Assembly: GCA_003024175.1 (NCBI GenBank)
Contig: MDYQ01000162.1
Location: 21,652 to 85,651, forward strand
DNA length: 64,000 bases
Reading direction: 5' to 3'
Origin: Planoprotostelium fungivorum
Lineage: Eukaryota; Evosea; Variosea; Cavosteliida; Cavosteliaceae
In this document: piece after piece, positions 23,179 through 48,863 of the stretch
Layout: the number at the start of each line of letters is the position of its first letter
How positions within the stretch are numbered: the first letter of the stretch is position 1
The notes under the pieces: model-generated
Told to the model about the DNA's origin: nothing
Database searches by the model: none
Seen by the model: the letters and a program-made list of their open reading frames with translations, nothing else
Made by a program: the position numbers and the translations under genes

Positions 23179-23358
23179 AGACGTTGTGTTCGTCGAAGAT
23201 GATGAGAGTGTGTGTGATCCTGTGTGTAACACTTCTATATAAACCGAGTGGGATCATGGTGATGTGTCCTCTCTTTTTCTATTTTCGTGTCGTTTGGTAC
23301 GATAATCCGTTTTAATTCTTTTATTCATTTTTGTCTCTATCATCTGATGTCTTTGCAG

Positions 23359-23772: not shown

Positions 23773-24003
23773 TCGAACTGGTCCATCTGGCGGTCGTCGC
23801 CCGAGATGGTGCCTCTTCTATCGTTCGACCCTTTTGATACAATCTATTCTCTTTTTACTTGGAAAGGTGAGCTTTTCCCTACTGCTTTGAGTCACCTATC
23901 ATCTGAAGGTGCACCACCTCGTATGGGGGCGAGGAAGGAGTTACAGACAATAGTCCACACAGCTGGAAGTTTGGCAAAGTGTGCCAAGGCGTCACAGCAC
24001 GTC

Positions 24004-24076
24004 GGGGATGTAGCTCAGATGGTAGAGCACTCGCTTAGCATGCGAGGGGTACAGGGATCGATACCCTGCTTCTCCA
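24004..24076 (+). tRNA. tRNA-Ala (AGC)
   Basis: Complete cloverleaf: acceptor stem GGGGATG with CTTCTCC and discriminator A, D-arm TAGCTCAGATGGTAGAGCA, anticodon stem CTCGC/GCGAG with loop TTAGCAT, and T-arm CAGGG/CCCTG with ATCGATA loop. Anticodon AGC. The G3:U70 pair that identifies alanine tRNA is present. Position 6-67 is a T-T mismatch. No intron. Confidence 0.95.
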
Positions 24077-24324
24077 CTCCCTTTTATGTGACAGCGTACG
24101 AGGGTGAGTCCAAATCACGTCGTATGATCCTCTGGTTACTCAGAAACGATACACTTGCTCAAAAAAATCGTCATGATGAAGATAGCACCATCGTGATCAA
24201 CATCATCGCACCGCATCACGATGTCGCTAATCATCCTCACATCAACCTCGTTTTCTACTCTATTAGATTCACTCCTCCGTCTGCAATCGACCCGCCCAAC
24301 CTAAAAGATTCCAGACCAAGGTGA

Positions 24325-24549
24325 GACTGTCTTTGGAGGTCCGACGCTCTTCTTGGGTGGTGCTGATTCCAGATACATCGCCTCTGGCATACGAAGAGAC
24401 GATGAGAAAGTTGTTTCCACTCCACACGACTCAGTTCATCGAAGGAACTGGATACTGAGTACAGGCAGAGAGAAGAGTTTATAAAAATTGTCTCTGCCTT
24501 AAGAGGCAGAGTGAAAGTGTGTTCATCTCAGTCCAAGGCCGTTCATGAC
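24325..24549 (+). pseudogene. Broken tail of ABHD11-like hydrolase
   Basis: Reads GPTLFLGGADSRYIA and then shifts frame, compared with the intact gene at 45104-46222 (GPTLFLGGADSRYIASEYEE). The catalytic-His region has lost bases and has a TGA. Homology runs past the stop codon of the parent into its 3' flank (GTGTGTTCATCT block and CGTTCATGACTT block). It exists only because the inverted duplication included the hydrolase 3' end. Confidence 0.88.
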
Positions 24550-24838
24550 TTTGGAGTGTTGATTGATTCTTTGGAGAGGGGACTGACCAGCAGTTCGGAC
24601 TTTGATCTCGAAAGAACAAACAATGCGTATGTTTTCGATGGAACACGGTCATTGTTGCATCGTCAGCTACACGATCCACGATTCTTTTCACGCGTGATAG
24701 TGTAAGTAGGAGGCGACACTGGAAAGTATCTAATGAGACGTCCATTCACTCAATCTGAGCGACGCATTTGAATAAGCAAACTCTTATATGACATATATAT
24801 TATGCTCAACAACATTTGTGTCCAGAGAAGAAGAGCGT

Positions 24839-27581
24839 TCAGAAGATCCACCAGTTCTGCACTCTGTTCAAGCTGACGCTAGAGAGGATGTTGCCAAGCT
24901 CCCAGCCAGTTCCCCAGTCGTAAGAGGTCGTCTGCTGACTCCAGTTGGTGACAGGCACGACAGCACCGGTGAGATACTTGTCTCTGGCATCGATGATCTC
25001 CTCCTTGACGAGAGTGCGAGCAAAGACGAGGAACTCGTCGAGAGTACCGCGAAGAGGGTCAGCAGACAGCTTGCCTCCCACGTTGAGACCGACGACGCTC
25101 TGAACGAGGGCAGAGATGGGCTTGGCGCCGCAAGAGACGCCGTTCAGGTAGAGTTCGGCACGATCGGCACTGACGGCGACGGCAACGTGAGCCCACACGC
25201 CAACTTGTAGAGAGCTAGCGTCCCAGCTGACTGAGCTGCCCTGAGATGGCTGGAAGGTGATCTGCTTGGCGTTGCCATCGAAGGTGAGCTCCCAGCCGCT
25301 GAGAAGAGCCTTGGTCGATGCGATGACGTTCTTTCCTCCGATCGCATCCAGGCGCAACCAGGTGGCGATAGTGAAGGCCTTGTTGAGATCGAACTGAGGC
25401 AGAGTGATGTAGAGGCGATTTCCGCTCTTCCAGTTCAAAGCCTGTCTCAGCTTACCGACGACGAGAGAGATGTCAGTGGAGAAGGCGCCGTGACGGCCGT
25501 GACCAGAGTCATCGGTACATTTTCCCAGCTTGATCTTGTCGAATGACCAGTAGAGCCAGGGTAAGCCGCACTTCTTGCCGCCAGTCGTGGTAGACGATGG
25601 TGCCACAGTGGAAGATGAGGTAGGAGTGAAAGACTGAGAGGTCGTCGCTGCGTCTGTGGATGGGGTATACGTGGCAGCATCAGTGGGAGTGTAAGTCATT
25701 GCATCTGTTGCAGGTGTAGATGTGACGGTATCGGTAGGAGTGGAAGGCTGAGAGGTCATCGCAGGTGCAGACGTGGAGGTAGAACATCTGTTGCTGATGA
25801 TGGAGAGGATCTGCTGGGCAGAGAGAGACTGAGTGAACATCAGGAAGTCGTCGAGTGCACCCTTGAAGTTGCTGATGCTCTGATCGGCTGCGATGTAGAG
25901 AGGGCTAGTGACCTTGGACAGAGCGATGTTCTGAATGGCGCCAGCAACACCGTTGATGTACAGAATGACCTTGCCGCTCTTCTCTGCAGTGAAAGCCAAG
26001 TGGAACCATGCGTCAGTGGGAATGTTGATGTTCCAAGAAACGCTAGAGTAGCCAGAGGTGTAAGTGCATGTCTTTGCAATAGGGTTGATTGACAGCTCCC
26101 AGCCAGAGACGAGAGAGAAGAGACCTTTCTTTGCGGACACGATCTTCATCACTTTGTTGCTCGCTTGTACCTGTTCAATCTCAGTGATGTCCACGAGAGA
26201 GGAGAAAGAGTATAACTCACCTTCAACCAAGTAGCTATAGAGAAAGCACTTTCAAGACCGGCAGTTTGATCTAGTCTCAGACCCTGGAAGCCAGAAGCAG
26301 AGTCGAAGCCGAGTGCCTGCTTTGTCTTTCCCAAGATGACGCTTGGTAAGCCGAGCACAGTAGCGATCCTACCGTTTCCACTGTCGTCCTTCAACAGGCT
26401 GTTCAAGATGCCGTTGTCAAAGGAGTAGTAGCAGAAGGGGACGGGGATGGAAGGGCCTCCAGGAACGCAGGGAGCCGTCACGAGAGGAATCGAGCTGGTC
26501 GCGGGAATGTAAGTTGTCGGTGCAGGGATGGTGGGGGTCGATGGTGAAACCGAAGTGATGATGTTGGTCAGGGGGAACAGTCCTCCGAGGATGTTTGTGA
26601 CAACGTTGGTGGCGGGTAAAACGGATGTGACGACTTTAGTCACGGGTAGCACCGCAGTGACAACGTTGGTGACGGGCAGCACTGAATTGACGACGTTTGA
26701 CAGAACGTTGGGCACAGTGGGACCAGTGAGAGTGGCGTACAAGTAGTTGGCAGAGCAGGTAAGACCGCTGACCTTGTTGACGTACAAGTTGGAGCCGCCG
26801 TTTGGTGCAGAGCATGCGTACCATAGGAGGCTGCCGTTGTGGCTGAGGTAGTCACCGGAGATACCGAAGATCGTCTTGACAGCAGCGTTGGCAGTGTTGG
26901 CAACAGTGTTGACGGCACCGTTAGCAGCGGTAGTGACAGGGGCTGAGCCGTACATGAGCTGTCCAGCGGTAGAGATGTAGCACTGCTGACCCTTGTGATC
27001 GAAGAGAGATCCTGCAGACAGAGTGAAGTTGACTGCGGCAGTGGCGCTCTTTGCTGCGTTGATACGAAGCTGACCGCCCAGTAGAGAGCGAACATTATAG
27101 AGACCAAAGGGACTCTTGCATGTCGTGTCAGCGACAGCAGCTGTGGGCTGAGGGCAAGTGCTGATGTCTTGAGGCTGGCCAGAGACGCAGCAGAACTTGC
27201 TGCTGTCGTAACATGCGTCGCCGCAAGCCATCATGTTGTTGGTCACACAAGATGGAGGAGAAGAGCAACTGCGGTCAGTTCTGGCAGTGTACTGAACATT
27301 CATCAGTCGACGCTGTCTTAGTCATCTGCAAGAGAAGAACTCACCGAGCCGTCAGTTCCGCACTGGTAAGCGCAAGAAGCGATGCAGACGTCGTTGCAAG
27401 AGGTAGTTCCGATGGCACACAGACGATACTGTCCGTGATACTGGTCAGCGTTGCAGCTGTACTGAGAGGGATCGTAGCATGCGTTGACGCCAGAGCACCA
27501 GACATAGCCAGGCTGGCACATGTCGGCCCACACAGCTGTGGCCGAGAGAGCGAGAAACAGCAAAGTGATTGCGTGTCTCAT
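24839..27581 (-). CDS. Secreted Cys-rich protein with two laminin-G-like domains (copy 1)
   Basis: Three exons with introns 27344-27292 (53 nt) and 26220-26171 (50 nt). The N-terminus MRHAITLLFLALSATAVWAD is a signal peptide, followed by a Cys-rich module of about 130 residues (GYVWCSGVNACYDPSQYSCN, SCSSPPSCVTNNMMACGDAC). A Val/Thr-rich repeat region (VLPVTNVVTAVLPVTKVVTS) and a Pro/Thr linker follow. LamG-like domain 1 spans FCYYSFDNGILNSLLKDDSG to KVILYINGVAGAIQN; a Thr/Ser/Pro-rich stalk (STPTDTVTSTPATD) follows, then domain 2 from LPWLYWSFDKIKLGKCTDDS to DEFLVFARTLVKEEIIDARD. These are the concanavalin-A-like LamG_3 type, usually glycan- or protein-binding. No membrane anchor is seen. Likely a secreted or spore-coat/cell-surface protein. 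Confidence 0.85.
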
Positions 27582-27890
27582 CTTGTTCGTGGAGTAGTTG
27601 GATGTCGTTCGTGTGTTGTTGTTCGTAGGTCTGTTTCTTTTCGAATGATGTTGAGCCGAGGCTCACTTTCAGTCACGTGCATGGCTTCCCGGCACGTGGT
27701 GTAAACCTTTTCCTGTCAGTATTGACGTCTCCGGGTACCGCACACCATGTAGCTGTCTCTGTTTGATCTATGATTCGCTTATACAACACGGATGGAAGCA
27801 TAGAGCATTCGTAGGCGAACGGTGTTTTTCAGGTTGAATGTTCCATATCCCAACTTTTGTGCCTCCCTGCCTGTGGGCTATGAGCTATAA

Positions 27891-28790
27891 AATGATCGTT
27901 CCTCCATATATCTTGACGTCTTTGAGGCTACAAGGGTCACATCAGATCAGATCGCATCAATATTCTAATTTTCTTTTGGATGTCTAAATCGAAAGAAGTA
28001 ACTCAGAAGGATAGACAACTGTTTCATGTCCTCTCAAATTCTCTGTCTGAAATAGATCTCTTCGTTTAGAATCGATCGTTCTCTGCAATTCTCTCCTACG
28101 GCTAGCAGGGATGGTGTGCATACCCCGAAGGTCATGTCTAGTGGTTGTTCGATCACGGACGATACGGAGGGAAAACGAACTGCGGTCTTCTCTTTATTTG
28201 ATATTCCATTCTCGCCGTCGATCCTCTGAGCATCATGGTCAACTTCAGCGTCATACCCAGACACGGTCCGAGAGGAGATACACCGTTTCAGTAGCACCAA
28301 ATCAACTCGTCAAGAGTCACATTATCCAATATCGTCGATCACAAGTATTGCAAAGGTATCATCCTCATTCAGCTGAGGATCGAACACCAGATCGGAACTT
28401 GATCAACAGAAATGAGAGCCTTCGACCGGCAACTTTGACGAGGGAAAGGTCCACAATCCATGGGACTGTACGAATGGGCAACGATGAAACCCTGGATGAA
28501 GCACTGCGGGCAACATTTTGACGTGAAGAGGATTAAGAGTTGTCCCAATCCCAGATGTAAGGCAATGTAGATTGCTTAAAGGGGCTGGGAGTGGGATCTG
28601 TTGTTCTACGTTCACCTCCTATACCAATAAGTCGCGCTCGTTTACATACTATGGAAGTCGCATTGGAAGATCCTTCCAATGAAAGTGTCCAACATTGCTG
28701 TTCGGTTCCGCAATTCATTTTCTTCGTGAGAAAGGAAACCACCATTCTAGGGAGGAGCAACATCATTCTCACACAACACCGACCATCGCC
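27891..28790. other. Unassigned intergenic stretch
   Basis: About 900 bp between the left duplication arm and the small gene at 28791. Frames on both strands are short and overlap, and none shows a family motif or clean splice sites. Confidence 0.4.
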
Positions 28791-29088
28791 ATGAGAGTTC
28801 AATCGATGGAAATACCTCGCCAGATCCTGCCTCAGTTGAAGACGGGTCGCACGTCGAGCGCGAATAAGGTCGTCAGGCCCATCTTTAAGAGTCAGGAGCT
28901 GAGCTTAGAGGTGACACGAAGGTGTTAGATAAGATGATGTGACATTGAAACAGTTGGCCATGCCTCATGTGTTTCCTAGACAGGAGCCTGCGGACGAAGA
29001 GGATGACCGATACACTATCACCATCGACCGAACGGGGAGAAGGATATTTCGAGTGCATCAGATCGCCACCGTGGAGACACTACGCTGA
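28791..29088 (+). CDS. Small conserved-looking protein, 84 residues
   Basis: Two exons, 28791-28910 and 28954-29088, around a 43-nt intron with GTGACA donor and AACAG acceptor. The product starts MRVQSMEIPRQILPQLKTGR and ends RRIFRVHQIATVETLR, with DDRYTITIDRTGRRIFRV between. Basic at the N-terminus, acidic in the middle. An AATAAA follows the stop by about 15 bases. No family recognised; size and charge would fit a ribosomal, mitochondrial or complex accessory subunit but nothing in the sequence decides this. Confidence 0.55.
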
Positions 29089-29176
29089 GTTCGAGGTCTT
29101 GTGAATAAATTGTATAAACGTGCTCGCGATGACAATCATCTCCCACCACGATGCAGATGTCTACACGAACCGATCT

Positions 29177-31377
29177 TTATTTCATGAAAGACTTCCTTTC
29201 TGATTTTCTCTCAGACTTTCTATCTGATCTTCGATCTGATTTGGCGATGAGTGACTGTCTCTCTTGTTTCGACATCCTCTTCTGTTCGGAGTCGCGGTCA
29301 ACTGAGTCAAAGAGGAAGATGGGGCTGCCCGTCTCATCTTCATCTTCGGATGAGAAGTCTAAACTGGAGCGAGGCCTGGGAGGTCCGCGCCTGCGGGTTT
29401 CAGAGGAGGTCTTTAACGTGCACGTGTCATCTCACCAGAAGGTCATCCTCTGTCTTCTGTACTTCACGAGGACAAAACTAATGACAACTAGCATGGCGAC
29501 GCCGATGAGAGTGAGTAGAATAGCTAGTCCATGATTCTTCGGTACGTCTGCATCATCTTCAGATGTGATGCATCATCGTCATGACATCACCTCTCCCACA
29601 GTTGATGGGTCGACCGAAACCGATGAGTCCATTCTTCAGATCGAATTTCGTATAGAAGCCAGTCATCCAATTGTCACCTGTTCCATTCATCACGCTCGTC
29701 GCCCATTTAAAACACTTTAAAATCCTTTTTTAGACATTTCGTCTCTTCTCTCACCTAAGACAACGTGTGATTCGTTGTGTGACAGACCGATCATGAGCTT
29801 GGCACAGTAATTATATTTGAACGAACTGACTGGAAAATAGTGCACGTATTGACGTCCATTGATAGTCTTATTGAATCGAATTCCTTCCACTGTCTCGAAG
29901 ACAAAGGTGAGAGGAGGCAATATGCTGATCTCCTCTGTTTTTGTCATCATCATGATCGTGTCGATGATGTCGATGTTCTGATGATGATGTCTCACCCTCT
30001 TTGACCAACATGCAGCTGGTCGATGTGTTCGAGCACAACAACTTGGGCCCTCCGTCTTTGCAGATACTCTCCAGCTCTCGCACATATTGTCTATACAATG
30101 GATCTGGAAGCCAGATGCCGTCGCTGCCGCTGTCTATGGTGGCGAAGAAAGGTGTATCTGTCTCTTCACTCTTTGCATTCTTACCAAAAGACATGCCCCA
30201 CACGTTCACCGCGTAGGTTCCCTCTCTACAACGCGTCAGAGAGATTAAAATACCGACGTCGTCGATTTAAATGGGTGAAACTGCAATGGATGTAGACGTA
30301 TAGACCCACATTGGAGAGGGATCGAGGAGGGGTGCGTAGTCCATAGACTTCTCGGTGTGATATTTCTCTTGGTCATCTCTTCCCAAAATCAAAAATCCAT
30401 CTTGTTCTCCGAAACAGAGGGAGAAGGTCTGGTCCATCCAGAGGTTGTTGCTGAAGAACGATTGGATGATGCCCGGCATGACGGTTCTACCGTCTCCATC
30501 GGGGGTGGGTCCGAGAGCCAAGACGCCGTCCATCGATTGACTGGATAAAACGGCTCCTCTGATGACATTCAGATGGAATGACGAATCATGTGGTGATCTC
30601 ACACGGTCGTGCGATCTTCGACGGATTCCTCCGTAATAAGGACGAAATGACCGGTGGCCTGTGAGGAGAGTTGAGGATGATGTCTTTATGAGAATGTGAT
30701 GTGATTGATGTCTTCACCTCCGTGGTTCCTAATCTCAAAGTATCTTTCATGGGTAAACCCGTGTTGTTGTTCGTTTGATCCCACTGTTCGAGTCAGTTGG
30801 AGAACAGATGGGGAGCCTCACCGATATGTTCACGCAGCATGGTGTCTTACATTTGGTCTGGTTGCAAGTCTCTGGGTATTTGAGTGGATTCAGCATATCG
30901 TGCGACCACGATGCGTTTCGATCGTAACCCTCATTTTCTTTCGTGTGACGACATTGCTCCTGATTCATGTCGCCAGCACCCTTCACTATATGGCAGTCTC
31001 GGCTCACGACCGCTGTATAATACGTCCCGGTATCTACCTGCATGGAGAGTCACTCTAGAGGGGGTGATGTTTGGGAAGACATACCAACATGACAAACTTT
31101 TGTTCGGGTGACCCGAGACCTAGTGTGATGTAATAATCATTCGTATTGACTCCTCCCGTGATTTGGATGCTCCTCGTCTATGCCGTGATATCAGATGCGT
31201 ACAAATGATGTGTATCAATCTCACAATAGGAACCAGAGGGTTTGCACCTATCTCTAACCTCGACACCTCATCTCCAGAGACATCGCAGAAAATTGTCGAT
31301 GATAAGATGATGCAAACTATATTCAGTGAGACCCAAATAGAGAAGACAAGTGAAAGCTCACACAGTAATCGACACAT
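29177..31377 (-). CDS. Membrane-anchored pepsin-family aspartyl protease
   Basis: Many exons on the minus strand. Signal peptide from MCRLLCELSLVFSIWVSLNI. First active site VDTGTYYTAVV, preceded by DYYITLGLGSPEQKFVMLVD; second active site FFATIDSGSDGIWLP. Both catalytic Asp residues are present (DTG and DSG). Other family segments: SMDGVLALGP, QTFSLCFGEQDGFLILG and SHNESHVVLG. A C-terminal transmembrane helix (GLAILLTLIGVAMLVVISFV) follows, then a cytosolic tail rich in short basic repeats (SDRRSDRKSERKSERKSFMK) and TAA at 29177. Several Cys pairs suit a lumenal domain. The layout recalls BACE-like or plant-type A1 proteases. The intron before REGTYAVNVWGMS ends at a CGTTGTAG acceptor. Confidence 0.85.
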
Positions 31378-31760
31378 CAGGTACCTTCCTGTGAAGACAG
31401 CGGAACGATGAATTTCGCCTCTCAGAGCGATGCACTACAACGTGTATCTCGTGACAGAATACGCTGGCTTTCGCATTGATTTACGTGAGATACATGATGA
31501 CGAACCCATCCACTTCAATCCAAGCTACTGCTATGGTTATGAGTGGACCTGATGTATGCGTCATATGAGATGGTGCTCTGCCACTGATTCTAAATCTGAT
31601 CAAGAAGCATTACACACGATTGCGATTCAATTCACGTTCTTGCAGACTAACAGTTGAGAAAGAAGAAGGAAAGATTGTCAAAATTGTCTCATTTATCTCG
31701 TTGCCGCCAAAATTAAAGTTCAAAAAAATTCTCTGGTTGGGATGTGTGTTCGTTGGTTCC

Positions 31761-32552
31761 TCATGATAGCCATCTCTTGAGATGGGGGTGTTTCCTGATC
31801 TCGGCCATCGTGACTCTCTTCTGTGGCTCGGGCTCTAACATCCTCGTGATTAGATCCTTGGCCGTGCTCTTTACAGCTCTGTCTGGAAAGTGGACTCTCT
31901 GGTTGGGTGACCAATCTTCATCGTAGTTGAAGGGAAAGACTCCGTAGGTGAGAGTGAACATGACGACACCCAAGCTCCATACGTCGGCCAGTGAGGCATT
32001 GAAGTCGATGTCCTTCATGCGGACCTCTGGGGCTGCGTAAGGAAGGCTGCCTCCGTAGTCGTTGCACTCGTTGGATCGACGATCGATGTAGCACAATCCG
32101 AAATCGATGAGGGTGGCCGTCTTGGTGATGTTGTCCCACATGATGTTCTCCAACTTGATGTCCTTGTGGTAGACGTCCAGATCGTGAATTGCCGAGAGGG
32201 TGGCAGTCAGCTGAGTCATAATCCTTCGGATGATTCTGTCTGGCAGTGGCGTGAAGTGTTGATCGGCCATGATGCGAAAGAGGTCTTTGCCCTCAACGTG
32301 ATCCATCACCAGGTAGTAGTGATCGTCATCTTGATAGTACGATTTCAAGCATGCGACTCTCGGTACATTCCTCAGGAGGAGTCCAGCGATGATCTCGTTA
32401 GTGGCCCTTCGGTTGTCGTATGTCTTGACGATCTTCTTCACGATGGATGTCTTTCCATCACGTAGCGGTGGCACCAACAGAATCTGTCCTTGACTCCCTT
32501 GATCTAACGGCTTTGCTCTCTGCAGCAACTGGGTCACTTGCTCTGACCTCAT
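31761..32552 (-). CDS. Serine/threonine protein kinase
   Basis: One uninterrupted frame. Kinase motifs in order: SIVKKIVKTYDN (possible VAIK Lys), YYLVMDHVEGKDLFRIM hinge, VYHKDIKLENIMWD catalytic loop (HKD, catalytic Asp kept), LIDFGLCYID (DFG), GGSLPYAAPEV (APE), LADVWSLGVVMFTLTYGVFP, and the terminal helices ending HPHLKRWLS. All catalytic residues are present, so it should be active. The frame is open 5' to 32864, so the start could be MRSEQVTQ (32552), MRNNDESEKE (32666) or further out; 32552 is chosen because it lies just before the domain. No regulatory domain is seen. Resembles CAMK/SNF1-like kinases at low confidence. Confidence 0.88.
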   Translation of the reverse strand: MRSEQVTQLLQRAKPLDQGSQGQILLVPPLRDGKTSIVKKIVKTYDNRRATNEIIAGLLLRNVPRVACLKSYYQDDDHYYLVMDHVEGKDLFRIMADQHFTPLPDRIIRRIMTQLTATLSAIHDLDVYHKDIKLENIMWDNITKTATLIDFGLCYIDRRSNECNDYGGSLPYAAPEVRMKDIDFNASLADVWSLGVVMFTLTYGVFPFNYDEDWSPNQRVHFPDRAVKSTAKDLITRMLEPEPQKRVTMAEIRKHPHLKRWLS

Positions 32553-33157
32553 CGGCTTCTCTTCTTCTCGACGTTTGGAAAGTAAGAGAAGGCCAACATG
32601 CCAATGCAATTGACAGCGGAAAAATAGATAAGCAAGTTCTTTCTCTGATTCATCGTTGTTTCTCATGCGGAGAGTCCGTATCCATGGATCTGCGACAGCC
32701 CCAGCACGGAACAGTTCAGATTCTTTCCCTCTATGGAGGTTGCTTGGTGATAAATGCGTGATGTTACCACGCGGGAGTTCGTAACTGGCCTGATTAGCTC
32801 TATTTTGGGGGAAGAGATAGCAACTGAGCCATTGGACAGTCGTAATCGAGGCTTCGAAGTACACCTAGCGGGTTCTAACCTACTAAGGATGGCAGGTCGG
32901 CGCCCCATTCGAGGAGGAGCACGCGTGGGGCTGAACGCACGGCTGGGGTGCACCCTCGAACGTGATATGACGAATTCGCGGAACTATACGGTCTACCTGT
33001 GGCTTTTCAAACTGCCGCTGTACTAGGACCAGAGGTTCACCAGACATACCTCACGTGTTGATCGATAACCATATTTCTCACATTTATATTTTCGAAATTT
33101 CCGAAGCGTTTCTGAGCTGATTGGAAAACATAACGTCGCATCGTCATCACAGCCAAC
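32553..33157. other. Region between divergent kinase and dehydrogenase genes
   Basis: Holds the promoters of both genes. A plus-strand frame at 32754-33026 is open for 90 codons but shows no motif and overlaps the 5' extension of the kinase frame; it is not called. Confidence 0.4.
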
Positions 33158-34739
33158 ATGCCTACCGACAAGCCAAAAGTGCTCTTTATGAGTGGACCTG
33201 AATACGCCAAGGATGTCTGGAACGAGTTCATTCAAGATTTCACCGTATTAGTGAGCCTCATTTTACGTATCGTCACGTTTGTCAGCTGATTGTGTCTCAA
33301 GTTATGGGAAGAACAATCAAGAGAGGATTTCATCCGGGATCTATCATCGAAGTACGATGGCATCCAGGCCATCTACCGTGCAGCCAATCCAAAGTATCCC
33401 CACTACAAATTGGGCTCTTTTGACAGAGAGATCGTCTCCGCCTTTCCATCCTCTATGAAGATCTTTGTCAACGGCGCTGTCGGCTATAATGACGTCGCTG
33501 TCGATGTATTGTCAGAAAAGGGTGACGATCGCACCTCATTGTTCTCCACTGATCCTCTGCAATAGGTATCCTCTTCTGTAATACGGCATCCGTGAGATCA
33601 TCGATTGTGATTCGATCTCCTCTGATCATGTTGCAGGGATCAGACAATGCGACGGCAGACACGGCTCTGTGGCTTATCTTGAGTACATACAAGAACACGT
33701 GGCAATCCGAACAATCTGTCCGAGCTGGTGTGTGGAGAGATCGCACGAACGTCGTTGGAAGAGATCCCGCGGGAGACGTGAGAGATCGCATCATCTTCCA
33801 TCGACATCATCCCATGCAACGTCATCATCTCGGATCACGTGCGAGATGGTCTGCATCATCACACGACGGATGTTGACGAGAATAGACGGTGGGCATTCTT
33901 GGATTGGGAAACATCGGAAAGGCAATCGCAGTGCGATGCAAGGCCATTGGAATGAAGGTACAATACCACAACCGCAACCGAATCGATGCAGCAGGTGAGG
34001 AGATGTCTCCTATCTTCTTCTCCTTCGATAGAAGAAAAGTGACTTCACTTTCACGTCATTCAACTCATCTTGCATCTTCACAACGATGACGATCTGATCT
34101 TCATTCCATCTTCTCATCTTCTTCCATTTCCATCTTTCATCTCCCGATCGCGATCACGCCTCATCATCACCTTACCTGTTTCAGAGGAAGAGAAGTACGG
34201 AGTCACTTACAAGACTTTCGACGAGCTCCTCTCCTCCTCCGATACCATTGTCGTCGCTGTTCCTTTAACATCCGATACGAAGCACATTCTCAGTGGGTCG
34301 CACGAGATCATACGAAGTCGTGACCACGAACAGATGCGGAATCGTTTAAGAAAGTGAAGAGGGGAGTGATCATCGTCAACATCTCGAGAGGTGGTTGTGT
34401 CGATGAGAGCGCTCTGGTGGATGCCATCAAGGCCGGCAAGGTGAGGGGGAGAGTGGTGTGAGATCGAGTCTGACGGTGATGTCAGGTGAGCAAGGTAGGA
34501 TTGGACGTTTTCGAAGAGGAGCCCAAGATCCATCCCGATCTCTTGTCTAATGAGAAGCACGCACTCCTCCCTCACATCGGTGGAGCGACCGTCAACACTT
34601 TCTACAACTTTGAGGTGACGTCTCTTCACGTCACCGTCGCTAATGACGCCAGGCCATCGGAATGCAGAACATCAAGATGTGGTTGAAAGAAGGAAAAGCA
34701 AAGACACCCATCAACCTCAGCGCCATCCAAAAGCAATGA
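33158..34739 (+). CDS. D-2-hydroxyacid dehydrogenase (NAD(P)-dependent)
   Basis: About nine exons starting MPTDKPKVLFMSGPEYAKDV. Substrate-domain segments include KIFVNGAVGYNDVAVDVLSE and DNATADTALWLILSTYKNTW. The nucleotide-binding Rossmann motif is TVGILGLGNIGKAIAVRCKA. The catalytic set of the family is visible: Arg in VIIVNISRGGCVDESAL, Glu in VGLDVFEEEPKIHPDLL, and His in ALLPHIGGAT. The product of about 330 residues is the normal size. Fungal and protist relatives act as glyoxylate/hydroxypyruvate or 2-ketoacid reductases in the cytosol; the substrate cannot be told here. The gene ends GKAKTPINLSAIQKQ. Confidence 0.92.
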
Positions 34740-34887
34740 GATCTCCACAATCAAGCACCGAACGATCTTGGACGATGACAAAAAAAAGATGAAATGGTTA
34801 TGCGAATAAATCGTTGTAGATCGATGACGAGGAAATAAGGAGGAACGAAAGGAAGGACACAGAGAGATCATTTTTTCATCACACAAC

Positions 34888-36191: not shown

Positions 36192-36257
36192 ATTGTCTGA
36201 GATCTCGATATATAAAATGGATCGTACATCGCGTCGTCTCTTGTCTAACGGGAGCAG

Positions 36258-36405
36258 AGTGTGAGGGAAGATGAGCCACCGAACATATAAATCTCGCTCA
36301 TTGAATCACCTCCTCTTGAAGATGGCCCGTCAGAAGCGTGAGACATGATCGCAGCGATGAGAACGGCGATGATCATCAGGCACACGGTGGCGATGGAGGC
36401 ATTTG
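36258..36405 (-). pseudogene. Fragment of the claudin-like gene at 383-1071
   Basis: Read on the minus strand this stretch matches the third-helix region of the first gene (its GCTTGATGATCATCGCCGTT and ACATGTTCGGTGGC blocks), with several small indels that break the frame. Only about 148 bp is present. Confidence 0.85.
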
Positions 36406-36610
36406 GATCACTAATTTTTTGTCATGCATATTCCAGTGACCGTTTCATATTGAATAGTCCAAATTCCGGATCAAGGACAATTCCGGAACTTGTCGTTCTC
36501 ATCTTTGTAAAGTTCACCACACGCAATAGAAGAAGCATGTGTCTGTCGGCTGTTCGATTCAGGGCTCAAAGTTTCACACGGGACGAAGAATCACATCTCT
36601 GTCGAACAAC

Positions 36611-37916
36611 ATGATCCAGAACTTCTTCGGTCGAAATCGTCGAATGAATACTTCCATGGTCTACCGCACACAGAACCACCGCCTGACGCAAGATTTAATC
36701 CACGGAGAACAACAGTATGATGATGAGACGTGGCGACACAAGTGTCTGAGAGACTTCCACCACGAGGTGTGGAGACTGTTAAATCTTTGCGATTCGGTGT
36801 CAATTCCTTCGTCTGCTGACTGAGAGAAGGCGGGAAGAAATCATAACAGAAAATATAGCGAGGTCTATCGAGGTGATCAGGATGCCCGTCCCCTTTTCTT
36901 CTGATCTCGTGCAGATCTTCTCGACTGGAAGAGAATGGTAGAGTCTTTCACCGTCAGCAAGTCCGGTGGTGAGTGCACACCGTCATTCCGTGCCGATGAT
37001 CTCAGGAGGGCTGAGTTTATTCGACCAATTTGGCACGGGCGTCTCTTTACACGGTGAACCTCTCATCTACACTTGGCCTCACCATTGGGATGGTAGTCTC
37101 GTTCGTTACTGTGTGAACGGTTCAGGTTCTTACGAGTGAGTGATGCACCACGATGAGCGTGGAGAAAGTTGCCCTCTAGAGAAGAGATTGAACAGAAGAA
37201 GAGAGAGGGAGAGACTGACGACGAGATGTTGTGGGAGGATGGGATGGATTACTTTGTCTAGCAGTGCACCTCTGGTGTCTATCGGACACAAGACCGTGGT
37301 CTATTGAAAGAAGAGAGGGTGAGGAGAAGGTGGAAGAGTACAGACAGATGATCAGAAGGGGAGGAAGGCCACTGGTACTGGCAGCCGTCCCGAGGACTGT
37401 TCCATACAGTCGAGGCGTCATCGGATTTAGCGATAAGAGCGCACCATTCTATTGGTCGAATCAAAATCATTTCATACTGGATGGTCAAGGTGTCGATCTC
37501 TTCTCATTCAATATCGACGATCGTGATCGCATCATGCGTCACTCTATGTTGATTCCACTCACTTTGCCCAATTCCAGGCTTACAAGGATGAGAGCATAGA
37601 TCCCTTCTTTCTTGCCATCCGTCTGAACCAGAGAATACAAGAGAAGGCTTACGTCAGGCCCGGTGGCATATACTGGGGCGCCTGGGACTCTTGGGTCCAA
37701 CACACACTCATCACGGCTGTGCAAGGAGACGAAGCAGATGATTTCGCGACGAAGGAAGAACTGAAGATGGTTAAGAGGATGCAAGAGATCAGCAGAGAAA
37801 GAGTTGAACGGGGCGAAACACTCGACCCCGACGGAGATGAGGCCCAGATGCTGAGGTGGGAGAGCGATTGGAACAGCTTCTTGGTCAACATCGGGCCAAA
37901 GACAGAAGATAAATGA
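36611..37916 (+). CDS. Unrecognised multi-exon protein
   Basis: Starts MIQNFFGRNRRMNTSMVYRT. Exon pieces in order: RHKCLRDFHHEVWRLKYSEV, DLLDWKRMVESFTVSKSGGL, SLFDQFGTGVSLHGEPLIYT and WPHHWDGSLVRYCVNGSGSY, then RRGGRPLVLAAVPRTVPYSR, SAPFYWSNQNHFILDGQGVD, and a last exon FFLAIRLNQRIQEKAYVRPG, GGIYWGAWDSWVQHTLITAV and WESDWNSFLVNIGPKTEDK. About 350 residues; rich in aromatic residues. Junctions around 37140-37330 are not settled. The ATG could lie in an upstream exon. I do not recognise the family. Convergent with the RNase Z-like gene, 15 bp apart. Confidence 0.55.
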
Positions 37917-37931
37917 AATGATCAGGCAACT

Positions 37932-38852
37932 TCATGTTTCATTCGGATCATCACACCACACGATGATGTTTTTCGGTTTTCCTTCTTTGAAAAAGTCGAT
38001 GATGTCTCTCTTGCTGTACTGATGGCTGAAATGTGTGATGATGAACGTTGTATCGGGATAGCGCACGATCACATCCTGTAAATCGGCCCACAGCGTGTGT
38101 TTCGTCTTCTCTGCGTTCTTTCGGTGTTTCTCATCTAAGAAGGTGCACTCTGTGATGACGACCGGCATGGTAGACAGCCACGATGCACTCTCCTCAGAGG
38201 ACAGAGTCTCGGCCGTTGTGTCTCCCAGGAAGGTGAAGAGGGATTTACGGCAGATCTCGGTGATGTCGATTCCATCTTGTCTCAGCTTCTTCAGATCAGC
38301 ACCAGCACGCCCTTGATATTCTCTTCGGAGGCGGTGGGTGATCTTGTGGAAGGTGAATCCAACTGATGGGCAGCTGTGATCGCAGTTGATGACTGTGATC
38401 TCGTATGGAAGATTGTCCAGAGTGATGATGTCTCCTGGCTGGACGCCGTGGGTCACATGATTGGTCTGGTACTCTTCTGGTGTCATCGCACACGCTCCGG
38501 TCAATTGTTGGCTCGAAAAGAGGTACTGGTCCAACAGAGGTGCAGTGCTGATAGGTATATACACCTTCGGTGGCTTCGCGCGTGAGACCAGTGCAGTCAT
38601 TCCAAACGAGTGATCAGAATGGCCGTGCGTGATGAATACGTGTGAGGGATGCGATGTGTGAACTTTGAAGGGTCCAGCATCTAAAGAGAAGGAGAGTTCT
38701 GGAATGAAGAATGAGGTTGTGTCGGCGGCACGAGAGTATCCAATGAGCGTCAACCTCTCATTGGGTATAGGTAAAGACACCGATAGGTTCGTGTGACCGA
38801 CTCCCAGTCCGATCAACTCTGGTTTGTGTTTCGAGGCAAAGTGTGTTGTCAT
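37932..38852 (-). CDS. RNase Z-like metallo-beta-lactamase-fold protein
   Basis: The core frame from MTTHFASKHKPELIGLGVGH has the TRZ-type layout: GYSRAADTTSFFIPELSFSL, metal motif VFITHGHSDHSFGMTAL (HxHxDH), a later His in VINCDHSCPSVGFTFHKITH, an Asp in LFTFLGDTTAE, and a final FIITHFSHQYSKRDIIDFF. These match plant and protist short-form tRNase Z, the endonuclease that trims tRNA 3' trailers. The frame is open 5' to 39014 and this extension (MNRLIKVPISLTVVLQSRSL) resembles a mitochondrial presequence. Alternatively it contains a 5' UTR intron, since a pyrimidine-rich AG acceptor abuts the ATG at 38852. A tRNA-His gene lies 15 bp upstream of 39014. Confidence 0.85.
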   Translation of the reverse strand: MTTHFASKHKPELIGLGVGHTNLSVSLPIPNERLTLIGYSRAADTTSFFIPELSFSLDAGPFKVHTSHPSHVFITHGHSDHSFGMTALVSRAKPPKVYIPISTAPLLDQYLFSSQQLTGACAMTPEEYQTNHVTHGVQPGDIITLDNLPYEITVINCDHSCPSVGFTFHKITHRLRREYQGRAGADLKKLRQDGIDITEICRKSLFTFLGDTTAETLSSEESASWLSTMPVVITECTFLDEKHRKNAEKTKHTLWADLQDVIVRYPDTTFIITHFSHQYSKRDIIDFFKEGKPKNIIVWCDDPNET

Positions 38853-39029
38853 CTGAAAAGAAGATGTGATGTGATGCGGACAGGAATGCGATGACCCGTT
38901 CACCGAATCGGTGAACTGATCGCCTCTTCTCCTTCGGAAACTTGACGATGTCGAGAGTGATCGCGATTGTAGTACGACAGTGAGACTGATGGGTACCTTG
39001 ATGAGTCTGTTCACTCACAAAAGGTCGGT

Positions 39030-39100
39030 TGCCTACGCGCGGAATCGAACCGCGGTCGTTGGAGCCACAATCCAAAGTACTACCCCTATACTACGTAAGC
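39030..39100 (-). tRNA. tRNA-His (GTG), copy 1
   Basis: Minus strand: acceptor GCTTACG/CGTAGGC, anticodon stem TTGGA/TCCAA with loop TTGTGGC, T-arm GCGG/CCGC with TTCGATT, discriminator A. The base before position 1 is G in this copy. Confidence 0.95.
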
Positions 39101-39187
39101 CAGGTGACGACGCATCACAAACTGCAATAGGATTGGTACGTCTTGACGAGTGCGAGCTGTTATGCGAAGGTATGATAAAAAGTTGAT

Positions 39188-39258
39188 TGCCTACGCGCGG
39201 AATCGAACCGCGGTCGTTGGAGCCACAATCCAAAGTACTACCCCTATACTACGTAAGC
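39188..39258 (-). tRNA. tRNA-His (GTG), copy 2
   Basis: Identical to copy 1 over the mature region, 87 bp away in the same orientation. A T5 tract follows on the minus strand (Pol III terminator). G precedes position 1. Confidence 0.95.
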
Positions 39259-39536
39259 CGGGTGTTGTGCTCATATGATTCTGTGCATAGGACATCACGC
39301 AGTGATATCAGCCCAGTAAGACTCACTCATCGACCATTATAGAAGTGAGTCCACTTTGAAATCATATTAAACTAAGCATCCTCGTGATCACGGAGATTGA
39401 ATAGATCGCTTAGATCTAATATCAGATCCAAAGATTCCCAAGGAACGATTTTGTTTCCAGGAACTGCCGAAATCCGTCTCACATCACAGAAGATGACAGG
39501 GACATCGAAGGAGGCATCACACAGAAGAATCACACC

Positions 39537-41534
39537 ATGACGACCCCAATCACCCAAAATGATCTTGCGTTGGCCACGATGAGAGATGTGGAGGAGACGG
39601 TCGATATGGATGATTCGACGAGTCTAACACTGGCTTGGAAGAAGCTCACGGTGGAGACCCCAGACAAGAAGAAACTACTTTCTGATGTTTCTGGGCAAAT
39701 CAGTGGCAGTCTGTTGGCTATAATGGGACCGTCTGGAAGTGGAAAAACAACACTGATGAATGTCTTGGCTAACCGTGTGAGGGGTGTCAAGATCACAGGA
39801 GATATCAGGATCAATGCACAGAAGGTCACATCTTCTCTGTTGAAAAGAGTATCGGGTTACGTGATGCAGGACGACCTTCTTTTCGAGCACTTAACAGTAG
39901 AGGTGACGGTCGAAATACTGATGGATCATTGAATTCAGTTAGGAGACAATGCATTACACGGCCGATCTGAGGTTACCAAGGGAGATGACTTCGCTTGAGA
40001 AGAAGGAGAGAGTGAACGAAACCATCTCACAATTGGGATTGGAATCATGTCGAGGGACAGTCATAGGAGGTGTAACCATCAAAGGCATCTCAGGAGGAGA
40101 GAGGAAGAGATTATGTGTCGGCATGGAACTCATCACCCACCCCAAACTCCTCTTCCTCGATGAGCCCACGTCCGGTCTAGACAGCTCAACCGCCCTCTCT
40201 CTCATCACGACTCTGTCTCAGATCGTCTCCACTCGAAACTGCACCATCTTGTGTACCATCCATCAGCCCCAATCCAAGATCTTCCATCTCTTCCATTCAG
40301 TTTTGGTGATGAGCAAAGGACACGTCGTGGCGATGGGAGAGAGACAACAAGTCATCGACCAATACGAGAGGGCCGGATTTCCCTGTCCAGAGTTCACCAA
40401 CCCGGCCGACCATCTCATAGACGTAATCACACCCATCAACAGCGGCGATGAGCCAGAGTTAAGAGAGAACGTCGCAGCCATCCGAGCAGAGCAGTTTCAT
40501 CCACAATCAGACGAGGAGAAGGGATGCATCGTGGACGTTGATCCCATCGATCACGAGAGGATGCCCTGGCTGCGTCAATTCTTGACTCTGTCGAAACGAA
40601 CGACAAAGAGCCTCTTGAGACAGCGCTCTATCCTCATCACTCAACTCTTCCAGTCCATCATCATGGCAGTTCTCATCGGTACTGTTTTCTACCACATCGG
40701 AAACGATCAGAAGAGCACGATGAAGAGACAACCCGTGTTGTTCTTCTGTGTCATCAACCAAGGCATGTTCGCCGCTCTCATGATCATCAACTCGTTTCCA
40801 TCAGAGAGATCCATCACACTGCGAGGTGATGTGGAAGATGATGATGACGTCACTGATGTGACACAGAGAGGGCCGCGGGCAGCTACCACGTATCTGCTTA
40901 CTTTTTGGCCAAGTCCCTTGTAGAATTAGCCCCGCTCGTCATTTTCCCCGCCATTTTCTCGAGCGTCGTGTACTGGCTCGTCGGTCTACAACCTGCCGCC
41001 GACAAATTCTTCCTCTTCCTCTTCCTCATGATTCTCACGAATCTGTCGGCCACGTCGGGTGCTTCACCTTCTCATCTCACGATGCACTGACACGTCAACA
41101 GTGGCCCTGGCTATCTCAGCCGTGTGTAGGACGACTGATCTATCGGTGACCGTGATGCCCATGGCGTTAGAAGTTTTTCGCCTGTTCGGTGGATTTCTCA
41201 TGACGCCCGAAAATATTCCAAGGGGCTTCGTCTGGCTCGACGCACTCTCTTACGTCAAATGGGCTTACGTCGGTGGGTTTTATCTCATTTTATTTCTCCC
41301 CTACGTTGGCTGATGAGCGCAGCGATATCACTCAACGAATTGAGAGGACTGCAGTTGAATTGCACGGAGGCACAGAAAGTCAACGGAGCTTGTCCCGTCG
41401 TGAACGGAGAGCAGACGATACGGTCGTTGGGTCTAGACCGATTCACCATCGGTGAATGTGTGGGAGCCCTCTTGGCCATCATCATCGGCTGCAGAGTCAT
41501 CGCATTCCTGGCCCTTCGATTCCTCAAGAGATGA
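39537..41534 (+). CDS. ABCG-family half transporter
   Basis: Five exons. Nucleotide-binding domain: Walker A in LLAIMGPSGSGKTTLMNVLA, Q-loop VMQDDLLFEHLTVEE, signature GISGGERKRLCVGMELITHP, Walker B LLFLDEPTSGLDSSTALSL, H-loop TILCTIHQPQSKIF. The ABC2-type membrane domain follows: ILITQLFQSIIMAVLIGTVF, FFCVINQGMFAALMIINSFP, ERAAGSYHVSAYFLAKSLVE, IFSSVVYWLVGLQPAADKFF, MALEVFRLFGGFLMTPENIP, and a last helix IGECVGALLAIIIGC before RFLKR. NBD-first order and about 600 residues define the White/ABCG half-transporter group, which dimerises to export lipids or small molecules. All four introns are 37-48 nt and close in frame. Its AATAAA is near 41637. Confidence 0.95.
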
Positions 41535-42091
41535 AGAAATGTAAATAGAAAGAGAGTTCGACCTCATCTTGATTTAAGCCATCCACTCGCGATCTACGAT
41601 GATGAGGCGATCTGACAGCATGTAACATCGTAGCTTGAATAAATGTAAAGATATATGAAGAGCAATCGATATCTGATCTAGTGCGTTCAAATGGTATCAT
41701 AATCTATCATGTGAATATGAGCACTTCCATGGTAGCTACCAACCTTCTTCATTATCAAATAGAGATGTCTGTATTTGAACCGCAGTCTCATATCTTCACA
41801 GCCCACAGGCAGGGAGGCGCGAAAGTTTGGATATGGAACATTCAACTTGAAAAACACCGTTTGTCTACGAATGCCCCGTCGAGGGCTATTATAACCGGAT
41901 CACCCATCAGAAAGATATAGATACATGGTGTGCTGCACCCGGAGCCGCCAAAAATGACAGGAAGAGGTTTACACCACGTGCCGGGAAGCCATGCACGTGA
42001 CTGAAACTCAGCCGAGCCTCAACATCATTCGAAAAGAAACAGACCTACGAACAACAACACACGAACGACAACCGACTACTCAACGAACACG
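41535..42091. other. Intergenic, including outer end of right duplication arm
   Basis: No gene seen. From about 41800 the sequence matches the upstream flank of LamG copy 1, so the promoter of the LamG gene was duplicated with it. Confidence 0.6.
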
Positions 42092-45000
42092 ATGAGACAC
42101 GCAATCACCTTGCTGTTTCTCGCTCTCTCGGCCACAGCTGTGTGGGCCGACATGTGTCAGCCTGGCTATGTCTGGTGCTCTGGCGTCAACGCATGCTACG
42201 ATCCCTCTCAGTACAGCTGCAAGGCTGACCAGTATCACGGACAGTATCGTCTCTGTGCCATCGGAACAGCCTCTTGCAACGACGTCTGCATCGCTTCTTG
42301 CGCTTACCAGTGCGGAACTGACGGCTCGGTGAGTTCTTCTCTTGCAGATGACTAAGACAGCGTCGACTGATGAATGTTCAGTACACTGCCAGAACTGACC
42401 GCAGCTGCTCTTCTCCTCCATCTTGTGTGACCAACAACATGATGGCTTGCGGCGATGCATGTTATGACAGCAGCAAGTTCTGCTGCGTCTCTGGCCAGCC
42501 TCAAGACATCAGCACTTGCCCTCAGCCCACAGCTGCTGTCGCTGACACGACATGCAAGAGTCCCTTTGGTCTCTATAATGTTCGCTCTCTACTGGGCGGT
42601 CAGCTTCGCATCAACGCAGCAAAGAGCGCCACTGCCGCAGTCAACTTCACTCTGTCTGCAGGATCTCTCTTCGATCACAAGGGTCAGCAGTGCTACATCT
42701 CTACCGCTGGCCAGCTCATGTACGGCTCAGCCCCTATCACTACCGCTGCTAACGGTGCCGTCAACACTGTTGCCAACACTGCCAACGCTGCTGTCAAGAC
42801 GATCTTCGGTATCTCCGGTGACTACCTCAGCCACAACGGCAGCCTCCTATGGTACGCATGCTCTGCACCAAACGGCGGCTCCAACTTGTACGTCAACAAG
42901 GTCAGCGGTCTTACCTGCTCTGCCAACTACTTGTACGCCACTCTCACTGGTCCCACTGTGCCCAATGTTCTGTCCAACGTCGTCGGTTCAGTGCTGCCCG
43001 TCACGAACGTCGTCACATCGGTTTTACCTTTGACCAACGTTGTCACCAACATCCTCGGAGGGCTGTTGACAGCTACCAAGGTCGTCACTTCCATTTCACC
43101 ATCCACCCCCAACCCTTCTGCTACTACTCCTTTGACAACGGCATCTTGAACAGCCTGTTGAAGGACGACAGTGGAAACGGTAGGATCGCTACTGTGCTCG
43201 GCTTACCAAGCGTCATCTTGGGAAAGACAAAGCAGGCACTCGGCTTCGACTCTGCTTCTGGCTTCCAGGGTCTGAGACTAGATCAAACTGCCGGTCTTGA
43301 AAGTGCTTTCTCTATAGCTACTTGGTTGAAGGTGAGTTATACTCTTTCTCCTCTCTCGTGGACATCACTGAGATTGAACAGGTACAAGCGAGCAACAAAG
43401 TGATGAAGATCGTGTCCGCAAAGAAAGGTCTCTTCTCTCTCGTCTCTGGCTGGGAGCTGTCAATCAACCCTATTGCAAAGACATGCACTTACACCTCTGG
43501 CTACTCTAGCGTTTCTTGGAACATCAACATTCCCACTGACGCATGGTTCCACTTGGCTTTCACTGCAGAGAAGAGCGGCAAGGTCGTTCTGTACATCAAC
43601 GGTGTTGCTGGCGCCATTCAGAACATCGCTCTGTCCAAGGTCACTAGCCCTCTCTACATCGCAGCCGATCAGAGCATCAGCAACTTCAAGGGTGCACTCG
43701 ACGACTTCCTGATGTTCACTCAGTCTCTCTCTGCCCAGCAGATCCTCTCCATCATCAGCAACAGATGCTCTACCTCCACATCTGCACCTGCGATGACCTC
43801 TCAGCCTTCCACTCCTACTCCATCTTCCACTCCCTTCGCCTCATCTGCAACAGACGCTATGACTTACACTCCTACCCCATCTACGACAGATGCAGTGACT
43901 GACACTCCTACCGATGCTGTCACGTCCACACCTGCAACAGATGCAGTGACTGAGACTCCCACCGATGCTGCCACATCTACACCATCCACAGATGTAGCGA
44001 CGACTTCCCAGTCTTTCACTCCTACCTCATCTTCCACTGTCACACCCTCGTCTACCACAGCTGGCAGCAAGAAGTGTGGCTTACCCTGGCTCTACTGGTC
44101 ATTCGACAAGATCAAGCTGGGAAAATGTACCGATGACTCTGGCCACGGCCGTCACGGCGCCTTCTCCACTGACATCTCTCTCGTCGTCGGTAAGCTGAGA
44201 CAAGCCTTGAACTGGAAGAGTGGCAACCGTCTCTACATCACTCTGCCTCAGTTTGATCTCAACAAGGCCTTCACCATCGCCACCTGGTTGCGCCTGGACG
44301 CTATCGGAGGAAAGAACGTCATCGCATCGACCAAGGCTCTTCTCAGCGGCTGGGAGCTCACTTTCGATGGCAGCGCCAAGCTGATCACCTTCCAGCCATC
44401 TCAGGGCAGCTCTGTCAGCTGGGACGCTAAATCCTTACAAGTTGGCGTGTGGGCTCACGTGGCCGTCGCTGTCAGTGCCGATCGTGTCGAACTCTACCTG
44501 AACGGCGTCTCTTCCGGCGCCAAGCCCATCACTGCCCTCGTCCAGAGTATCGTCGGTCTCAACGTGGGAGGCAAGCTGTCTGCCGACCCTCTTCGTGGTA
44601 CACTCGACGAGTTCCTCGTCTTTGCTCGCACTCTCGTCAAGGAGGAGATCATAGATGCCAGAGACAAGTATCTCACCGGTGCTGTCGTGCCTGTCACCAA
44701 CTGGAGTCAGCAGACGACCTCTTACGACTGGGGAACTGGCTGGGAGCTTGGCAACATCCTGTCTAGCGTCAGCTTGAACAGAGTGCAGAACTGGTGGATC
44801 TTCTGAACGCTTCTCTTCTCTGGACACAACAAATGTTGTTTATCATAATACATATGTCATATAAGAGTGTTCTTCTTCAGATAGTTTGTATCTGTGAGAA
44901 CGAGTTATCGTCTTGCGAGTAGTCGCCTTAGCATCGACAATACTTCTCCTCTCTTACGGCGAATGATCAAAGACGAGACAGAAGAGACTCTCTCATGAGC

Positions 45001-45325
45001 TACGAACAGATTCAGTAAAGGCATTTGAAACCATGTTCGGGTGATGCCAAGGTAGCCCCGATGCGAAGTCATGAACGGCCGTGCACTCAGATGAACACAC
45101 TCTTCACTCAGTCTCTCCCTTCAAGAAGGCAGAGACGATCTTTATAAACTCTTCCGGCTTCTCTGCCTGCACCCAGTGTCCAGCCCCTCCGATGAACTGA
45201 GTCGTGTGGAGTGGAAACAACTTTCTCATCGTCTCTTCGTATTCTGACGCGATATATCTGGAATCAGCACCACCCAAGAAGAGCGTGGGACCTCTAAAGA
45301 CTCTCTCGCCCTGTTGAGGAAAGTC
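41800..45325 (+). repeat. Right arm of 3.5-kb inverted duplication
   Basis: Inverted match to 24313-27890. It carries the LamG copy 2 and the 3' end of the intact hydrolase gene. The arms are separated by about 13.9 kb of unique sequence. Confidence 0.9.
42092..44806 (+). pseudogene. Secreted LamG-like protein gene, copy 2, frameshifted
   Basis: Nearly identical to copy 1 at both ends: same signal peptide, same intron positions (42329-42381 and 43332-43381) and same C-terminus QNWWIF. Differences cluster in low-complexity parts. The Val/Thr repeat region is shorter, and a deletion at about 43105-43116 removes the TYIPATSSIPLVTAPC segment and shifts the frame. The main frame therefore ends at 43149, before LamG domain 1. 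Downstream, both LamG domains remain open in their own frame, and the Thr/Pro stalk is longer than in copy 1 (added TDAVTDTPTDAVTSTP units). No splice pair that rescues the frame was found. The product is probably a truncated Cys-rich secreted protein, or the gene is decaying. Confidence 0.75.

Positions 45326-46484: not shown

Positions 46485-48863
<2,379 letters not shown>

What the first reader, a model, noticed from the sequence alone, without database searches (positions are those of the whole stretch)
24313..45325. 3.5-kb inverted duplication flanking 14 kb of unique genes, with reciprocal gene loss
The LamG gene, its upstream flank and the 3' end of the hydrolase gene occur twice in opposite orientation (24313-27890 and 41800-45325). 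In the left arm LamG is intact and the hydrolase tail is broken; in the right arm LamG is frameshifted and the hydrolase is intact. The hydrolase gene at 45104-46222 is therefore the source and the left arm the insert. Large inverted arms could also let the 14-kb middle segment flip by recombination.
Basis: seen in the sequence. Interest (0 to 1): 0.75.

Follow-up and report, generated by a model that had tools for sequence, protein, structure and literature searches.

The report
Inverted gene pair copying each other
Two copies of a surface-protein gene in a fungus-eating amoeba face opposite ways 14 kb apart and look to have copied sequence from one another, so parts of them seem far younger than the rest; this is a known kind of gene behaviour in a little-studied organism.

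Summary
The inverted repeat is real: 24329-27883 against 45301-41796, arms 13.9 kb apart. The host is the amoeba Planoprotostelium fungivorum.

Identity is patchy: 99.85% over 654 aligned bases and 99.1% over 696, about 94% in the rest of the 3' half of the gene, 70-93% in the flanks, and no detectable homology in one 0.2-kb spacer. Synonymous divergence is 0.00 in one tract and 0.16-0.26 next to it. That is the signature of gene conversion between older inverted paralogues (run test, 0 of 5000 shuffles).

The gene belongs to a dispersed family of at least 23 places. Hydrolase pieces also lie beside LamG at other loci, and the left arm's broken tail with its tRNA-Ala neighbour recurs on contig C388. 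So 'right is source, left is insert' is not established. Flipping of the middle is plausible but untested. Assembly error is not excluded. Ordinary kind, modest interest.

The parts
24329..24551 (+). Left arm: broken last exon of an alpha/beta hydrolase gene (protein-level similarity starts near 24251)
   Evidence: 86.1% to 45301-45066; stops and frame change. Same tail beside tRNA-Ala on C388.
24004..24077 (+). tRNA-Ala (AGC) just outside the left arm; conserved neighbour of the hydrolase tail on C388 too
   Evidence: C388 tRNA-Ala in L032 2578-2651.
24561..24768 (.). Left spacer between LamG stop and hydrolase tail; not homologous to the right spacer 44881-45050
   Evidence: Smith-Waterman 17 against shuffle mean 16, 72 of 200 shuffles (0.36) as high; positive control (tails) 307 against 17.
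24842..27581 (-). Left LamG gene (P0014): signal-peptide-like start, Cys-rich N-terminus, PIR1-like region, STP linkers, two LamG domains; two short introns
25785..26438 (.). Homogenised tract 1 (first LamG domain and intron 2): 1 mismatch in 654 to the right arm
26708..27403 (.). Homogenised tract 2 (PIR1-like region, intron 1): 6 mismatches in 696; 12 in 868 if taken to 27575
26439..26529 (.). The 91 bases of the left linker that are missing in the right arm (cause of the right frame break)
27582..28035 (.).
27884..41795 (.). Middle segment, 13,912 bases: protein kinase (31761-32864 -), EF1-gamma piece (35415-36191 +), metallo-beta-lactamase fold (37932-39014 -), two tRNA-His, ABC transporter (39537-41534 +)
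41603..41670 (.). Right-arm remnant of left 27895-27959
   Evidence: score 39, 0 of 500 shuffles as high (shuffle maximum 34).
42092..44803 (+). Right LamG gene (P0016), frame broken near 43113
45104..46222 (-). Right alpha/beta hydrolase gene, five exons, GHSMGG motif and end present

Best explanation
The arms are two old members of a dispersed, so far Planoprotostelium-only family of secreted LamG proteins. They lie head to head (promoters inward) 14 kb apart and are kept alike by gene conversion. The ancestral unit probably was the LamG gene with a convergent alpha/beta hydrolase gene. SHOWN: inverted pair; mosaic identity; near-zero synonymous divergence in one tract beside 0.16-0.26 elsewhere; purifying selection on both LamG genes; family of at least 23 places; hydrolase pieces at other LamG loci; left tail plus tRNA-Ala shared with C388. 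INFERRED: that conversion made the tracts; that it used the usual break repair with the other arm as template; that the right-arm deletion is recent; that the same recombination could now and then invert the middle segment.
For: Tracts of 654 aligned bases with 1 mismatch and 696 with 6 mismatches sit between segments at 83-95%. Synonymous differences 0 of 95.5 sites in tract 1, 6 of 144 in tract 2, 25 of 172 in LamG2, 14 of 63 in linker 2 (Fisher LamG2 against tract 1 p = 1e-5, tract 2 against LamG2 p = 0.002). Run test on 835 gap-free variable columns of 8 copies: left-right run of 139 identical sites, 0 of 5000 permutations as long (maximum 112); 2 of the other 27 pairs (right arm-C470, C470-C359) also gave 0 of 1000, so exchange is not confined to the arms. 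Left and right are sisters in LamG2, LamG1 and PIR blocks, support 0.99, 1.00, 1.00. The spacer between LamG and hydrolase tail is not homologous while both sides are, which one recent copy event would not give unless the spacer was later replaced.
Against: In the N-terminal block left and right are 97.5% alike but not a supported pair (0.36), and in the promoter block the right arm is nearer C152 (96.6%) than the left (92.9%); this fits mosaicism but also independent origins of the two copies. Tract GC is not raised: 50.2% in tract 1 against 57-58% in the unconverted 3' part, so the GC-bias mark of conversion is not seen. No reads were available to rule out that the assembler copied one arm into the other; 3 family copies stop at contig ends (C89, C173, C227). 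A recent single copy with locally fast decay is not formally excluded.
Confidence: 0.72

Rival explanations
1. One recent inverted segmental duplication from the right locus into the left locus, followed by uneven decay.
For: Left and right are each other's closest copies in three of five blocks. Left hydrolase is a fragment, right one is whole.
Against: Synonymous divergence from 0 to 0.26 within one gene; non-homologous spacer; left tail and tRNA-Ala junction also on C388; left upstream region continues past the supposed insert edge in 8 of 14 other copies.
Confidence: 0.13
2. Assembly artefact: the near-identical tracts, or the right-arm frame break, come from reads of one copy used for both.
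For: The family is repetitive and three copies end at contig ends. The right frame break was the only one at that linker among 8 near-full-length copies (open-frame columns), while the protein shows dN/dS 0.09.
Against: Both arms lie in one contig with different outer flanks and differ at many sites and by several indels outside the tracts. Long identical runs also occur between copies on different contigs.
Confidence: 0.1
3. The arms were once swapped by a crossover: the middle segment has already flipped, so that the intact hydrolase and the 28.2-29.0 kb neighbour, linked on C372, are now at opposite arms.
For: C372 carries hydrolase exons, a decayed LamG and the 28171-29047 stretch in one row; in the window the hydrolase is whole at the right arm and the neighbour is at the left arm. 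The tracts imply arm-to-arm recombination.
Against: The left arm also has a hydrolase tail, so a plain loss of the rest of that gene explains the same order without any flip. The right inner flank keeps a remnant of the family upstream region, so it is not a clean breakpoint. C372 is a decayed 13-kb contig.
Confidence: 0.05

Closest known systems
Inverted duplicate genes under concerted evolution by gene conversion, e.g. mammalian BMP8A/BMP8B (PMC2720389, abstract listing and passages seen)
   Same: Inverted orientation, patches of very high identity beside diverged stretches, run-based conversion test positive.
   Different: Here the pair is 14 kb apart and part of a family of at least 23 places in an amoeba; no raised GC in the tract; no second species to show persistence.
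Inversions caused by recombination between inverted repeats in humans (PMC3961182, passages seen)
   Same: Inverted arms that could carry such an event.
   Different: No second orientation observed here; arms are shorter identical stretches (longest run 564 bases).
Laminin_G_3 (PF13385) proteins, public name 'S-layer-like domain-containing protein'
   Same: Both LamG domains match PF13385 well above cut-off; best solved structure by sequence is an S-layer domain-containing protein, 4qvs.
   Different: Whole architecture found only in P. fungivorum: 13 of 16 hits; the other 3 are weak (22-27% identity).

Membership tests
Inverted paralogue pair homogenised by gene conversion | Two paralogues in opposite orientation on one chromosome | tested here: met
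   both on contig C104, opposite strands.
Inverted paralogue pair homogenised by gene conversion | Identical runs longer than chance given overall divergence | tested here: met
   run of 139, 0 of 5000 permutations; 8 copies used, the partial, decayed or strongly diverged ones left out.
Inverted paralogue pair homogenised by gene conversion | Silent divergence drops inside the tract | tested here: met
   0 of 95.5 against 25 of 172 synonymous sites, p = 1e-5 (the tract-1 block includes some codons of intron 2 read in frame).
Inverted paralogue pair homogenised by gene conversion | Raised GC in converted tract | tested here: not met
   50.2% in tract 1, 55.2% in tract 2, 57-58% outside. A frequent sign but not a defining one.
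Inverted paralogue pair homogenised by gene conversion | Paralogues more alike within a species than to their orthologues elsewhere | not testable with these tools
   No second Planoprotostelium genome was at hand; one search states that G000 has no relatives here.
Recombining inverted repeat that flips its middle | Both orientations observed | not testable with these tools
   Single assembly, no reads.
Transposable element | Copies share fixed ends, terminal repeats or target-site duplications, or encode a transposase | tested here: inconclusive
   Homology ends differ between copies and no transposase domain turned up in the arm frames given to Pfam; ends of all copies were not examined for short duplications.
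Laminin_G_3 (PF13385) domain protein | Score above Pfam cut-off | tested here: met
   126.8 and 121.3 bits against 27.6 for left and right models.

The most novel reading that the evidence does not exclude
Inverted pairs are a working feature of this LamG family: both contigs that carry two copies in the lists (C104 and C351) hold them in opposite orientation, 14 and 18 kb apart, each with near-identical stretches. The amoeba may use arm-to-arm copying to reshuffle a set of surface lectins, with occasional flipping of the genes between, as a slow diversity generator for prey or partner recognition.
Probability: 0.07. Interest if true: 0.55.

Novelty: new member of a known kind. Interest (0 to 1): 0.27.

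Why it matters
It is a clean case of how conversion can make an old gene pair look like a fresh duplication, so dates or source-and-insert arguments read from arm identity are unsafe. It also draws attention to a lineage-restricted, many-copy family of secreted LamG proteins in a fungus-eating amoeba, with no function assigned in the records seen. If arm-to-arm recombination is frequent, the 14-kb middle (kinase, EF1-gamma, ABC transporter) may exist in two orientations in a culture, which is simple to test.

Tried and rejected
Mobile-element origin: homology ends differ from copy to copy and no transposase domain was seen in the arm frames tested; not pursued to the level of short target duplications.

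Right-arm inner edge as a clean insert border: first accepted, dropped after one search showed a remnant of the upstream region beyond it.

A crossover that already flipped the middle: attractive because C372 links hydrolase and the left neighbour, but a plain loss on the left explains it as well; kept as a low rival.

So whether such pairs are special to this family is unknown.

Assembly method of the public genome: the genome paper was not held and was not found by searches; PMC5006619 (passages) only announces the genome. Name of the genome paper is recalled, not seen.

Full report
Where it is. The window is bases 21652-85651 of an 85,651-base contig (C104) in a genome of 36,859,091 bases and 471 contigs. 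Proteins from contigs of exactly these lengths (85651, 149226, 32768, 206997 and others) are named Planoprotostelium fungivorum in public records. The organism is a variosean amoeba, so genes have introns and the tRNA-Ala has anticodon AGC.

The observation. Self-comparison confirms a large inverted pair: four collinear pieces between 24329-27883 and 45301-41796, with arms 13,912 bases apart. A full alignment shows that the pair is a mosaic. Per stretch, in left coordinates: hydrolase tail 24320-24440, 92.5%; 24441-24560, 84.8%; spacer 24561-24770, about 42% by forced alignment; 24885-25784, 93.9%; 25785-26438, 99.85% (1 mismatch in 654); 26531-26707, 83.0% with large indels; 26708-27403, 99.1% (6 in 696); 27404-27708, 95.1%; 27709-27808, 70.2%; 27809-27884, 90.8%. 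The spacer pair scores no better than shuffles (17 against a mean of 16, 0.36 of 200 as high), while the tails next to it score 307 against 17.

The genes. The left gene runs 27581-24842 with two short introns, and public annotation calls it an S-layer-like domain-containing protein (P0014, 955 aa). Its parts are a signal-peptide-like start (read by eye), a cysteine-rich segment, a PIR1-like region (below the Pfam cut-off in P0014, 22.8 against 27.6 bits), Ser/Thr/Pro-rich linkers and two LamG domains (PF13385, 126.8 bits against 27.6). A match to a clostridial receptor-binding profile (PF07953) covers the same LamG fold; I read it as fold similarity only. The right gene lacks 91 bases of the first linker, which breaks its frame; the public model P0016 (932 aa) passes this with a predicted intron. 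By the open-frame columns the other seven of eight near-full-length copies (left arm, C36, C152, C470, C14, C359, C321) read through that linker in one frame. The hydrolase beside the right arm has a spliceable five-exon frame 46222-45104 with GHSMGG. Its last exon matches alpha/beta hydrolase profiles close to but just under the Pfam cut-off (24.5 against 25.8 and 20.5 against 26.3 bits).

Family. A protein search of the own genome with P0014 lists 84 matching stretches at 23 places on 21 contigs (48 of 86 candidates scored, so a lower bound; the weakest, C305 and C53, are 31-43% identical). A DNA search adds short pieces elsewhere. Outside this species only three weak hits came up (P0021-P0023, 22-27% identity; 13 of 16 hits are P. 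fungivorum, a word-based search of limited reach). Two contigs carry two copies: C104 (this window) and C351, where the copies at 18.7-19.9 kb (+) and 37.6-40.1 kb (-) are again inverted. There the 98% stretch is in the upstream flank (17154-18307 against 40845-42000), with a 164-base piece lying flipped inside it. C155 has a copy with an internal partial duplication.

Gene conversion. In trees of single blocks left and right are sisters in LamG2 (0.99), LamG1 (1.00) and PIR (1.00). In the N-terminal block they are 97.5% alike but not a supported pair. In the promoter block the right arm is nearest C152 (96.6%) and the left groups with C372 (0.84). Nei-Gojobori counts: LamG2 dS 0.161 (25/172), dN/dS 0.089; linker 2 dS 0.264; tract 1 dS 0 (0/95.5, block includes some intron codons read in frame); PIR dS 0.043 (6/144); exon 1 dS 0.080. 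Tract 1 against LamG2: Fisher p = 1.1e-5; PIR against LamG2: p = 0.002. A run test in the manner of Sawyer (name recalled) on 8 copies and 835 variable gap-free columns gave a left-right run of 139 sites, 26435-25970, never reached in 5000 permutations (maximum 112). Of the other 27 pairs, right arm-C470 (30 sites) and C470-C359 (46 sites) were also never reached in 1000 permutations. Copies left out of that test: C155, C89, C227, C372 and the more diverged ones. Tract lengths of 650-700 bases are near the fly average of 518 bases quoted in PMC3961182 (passage). Against this reading, GC is lower in tract 1 (50.2%) than outside (57-58%); PMC2720389 (passages) describes raised GC as characteristic of conversion.

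Which arm is the source. But pieces of the same hydrolase lie beside LamG on C36 (exon 2-3 part) and on C372 (exon 3-4 part). On C388 the last-exon piece lies beside a tRNA-Ala and upstream sequence that align with the left arm's outer flank from 22876 to 24534 (82%, 87%, 73% and 75% by piece); no LamG was found in the C388 stretches searched. The right tail is nearer C388 (83.5%) than the left one is (75.4%). On the inner side, left 27885-28035 is clearly matched in 8 of 14 other family copies tested (scores 49-164 against shuffle maxima of 25-31), more weakly in the right arm (39) and C351a (36), and not convincingly in C470, C14, C359, C81 and C21. So the left arm has no insert edge at 27890, and the hydrolase-LamG unit was copied several times. 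Which arm came first cannot be told from this genome alone.

Mechanism and function. Most likely: break repair in one arm used the other as template, which renewed at least two stretches of the gene; selection kept the LamG2 domain in both genes in the meantime; the right gene lost 91 bases recently or only in the assembly. The same machinery can give crossovers that invert the middle, as known for human inverted repeats (PMC3961182, passages). Nothing here shows that this has happened. The proteins are probably secreted or surface lectin-like proteins; this is inferred from domains, and no test exists in the material seen.

Verdict. A real feature, correctly spotted, of a known kind; the dating and direction drawn from it do not hold. 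Six paper searches returned no paper whose listing concerns this gene family or this pair. That is a statement about those searches of an open-licence library, not about all print.

Noticed in passing
Contig C351, 17154-20131 and 37591-42000 (L019, L020): A second inverted LamG pair, 18 kb apart, with a 98% identical upstream flank of at least 1.15 kb and a 164-base piece flipped inside one arm; both public gene models there also contain a UBC domain (P0017, P0020).
   Followed up: partly
window 39030-39100, 39188-39258, 48995-49065, 51614-51684: Four near-identical tRNA-His genes; another near-identical match lies just before the window at C104:20826-20910.
   Followed up: no
window 624-2508 and contig C372 (L029): The 13-kb contig C372 starts with a 92-97% copy of window 624-2508 and continues into a decayed hydrolase-LamG-neighbour row.
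   Followed up: partly
window 36399-36437: A 39-base sequence repeated at 90-98% identity on more than twenty other contigs; next to it 36275-36401 matches 685-817 inverted at 84%.
   Followed up: no
window about 48220-48262: A motif of about 42 bases found on many contigs, often in tandem.
   Followed up: no
window 49200-50682: Stretch with relatives on C22 (83%), C443 (two copies) and C80 (71-72%); two of its frames have no Pfam match.
   Followed up: no
window 18108-18813: Repeat with copies on C21 (84%), C315 (87%) and C155 (91%), and an internal direct repeat 18137-18387/18542-18792.
   Followed up: no
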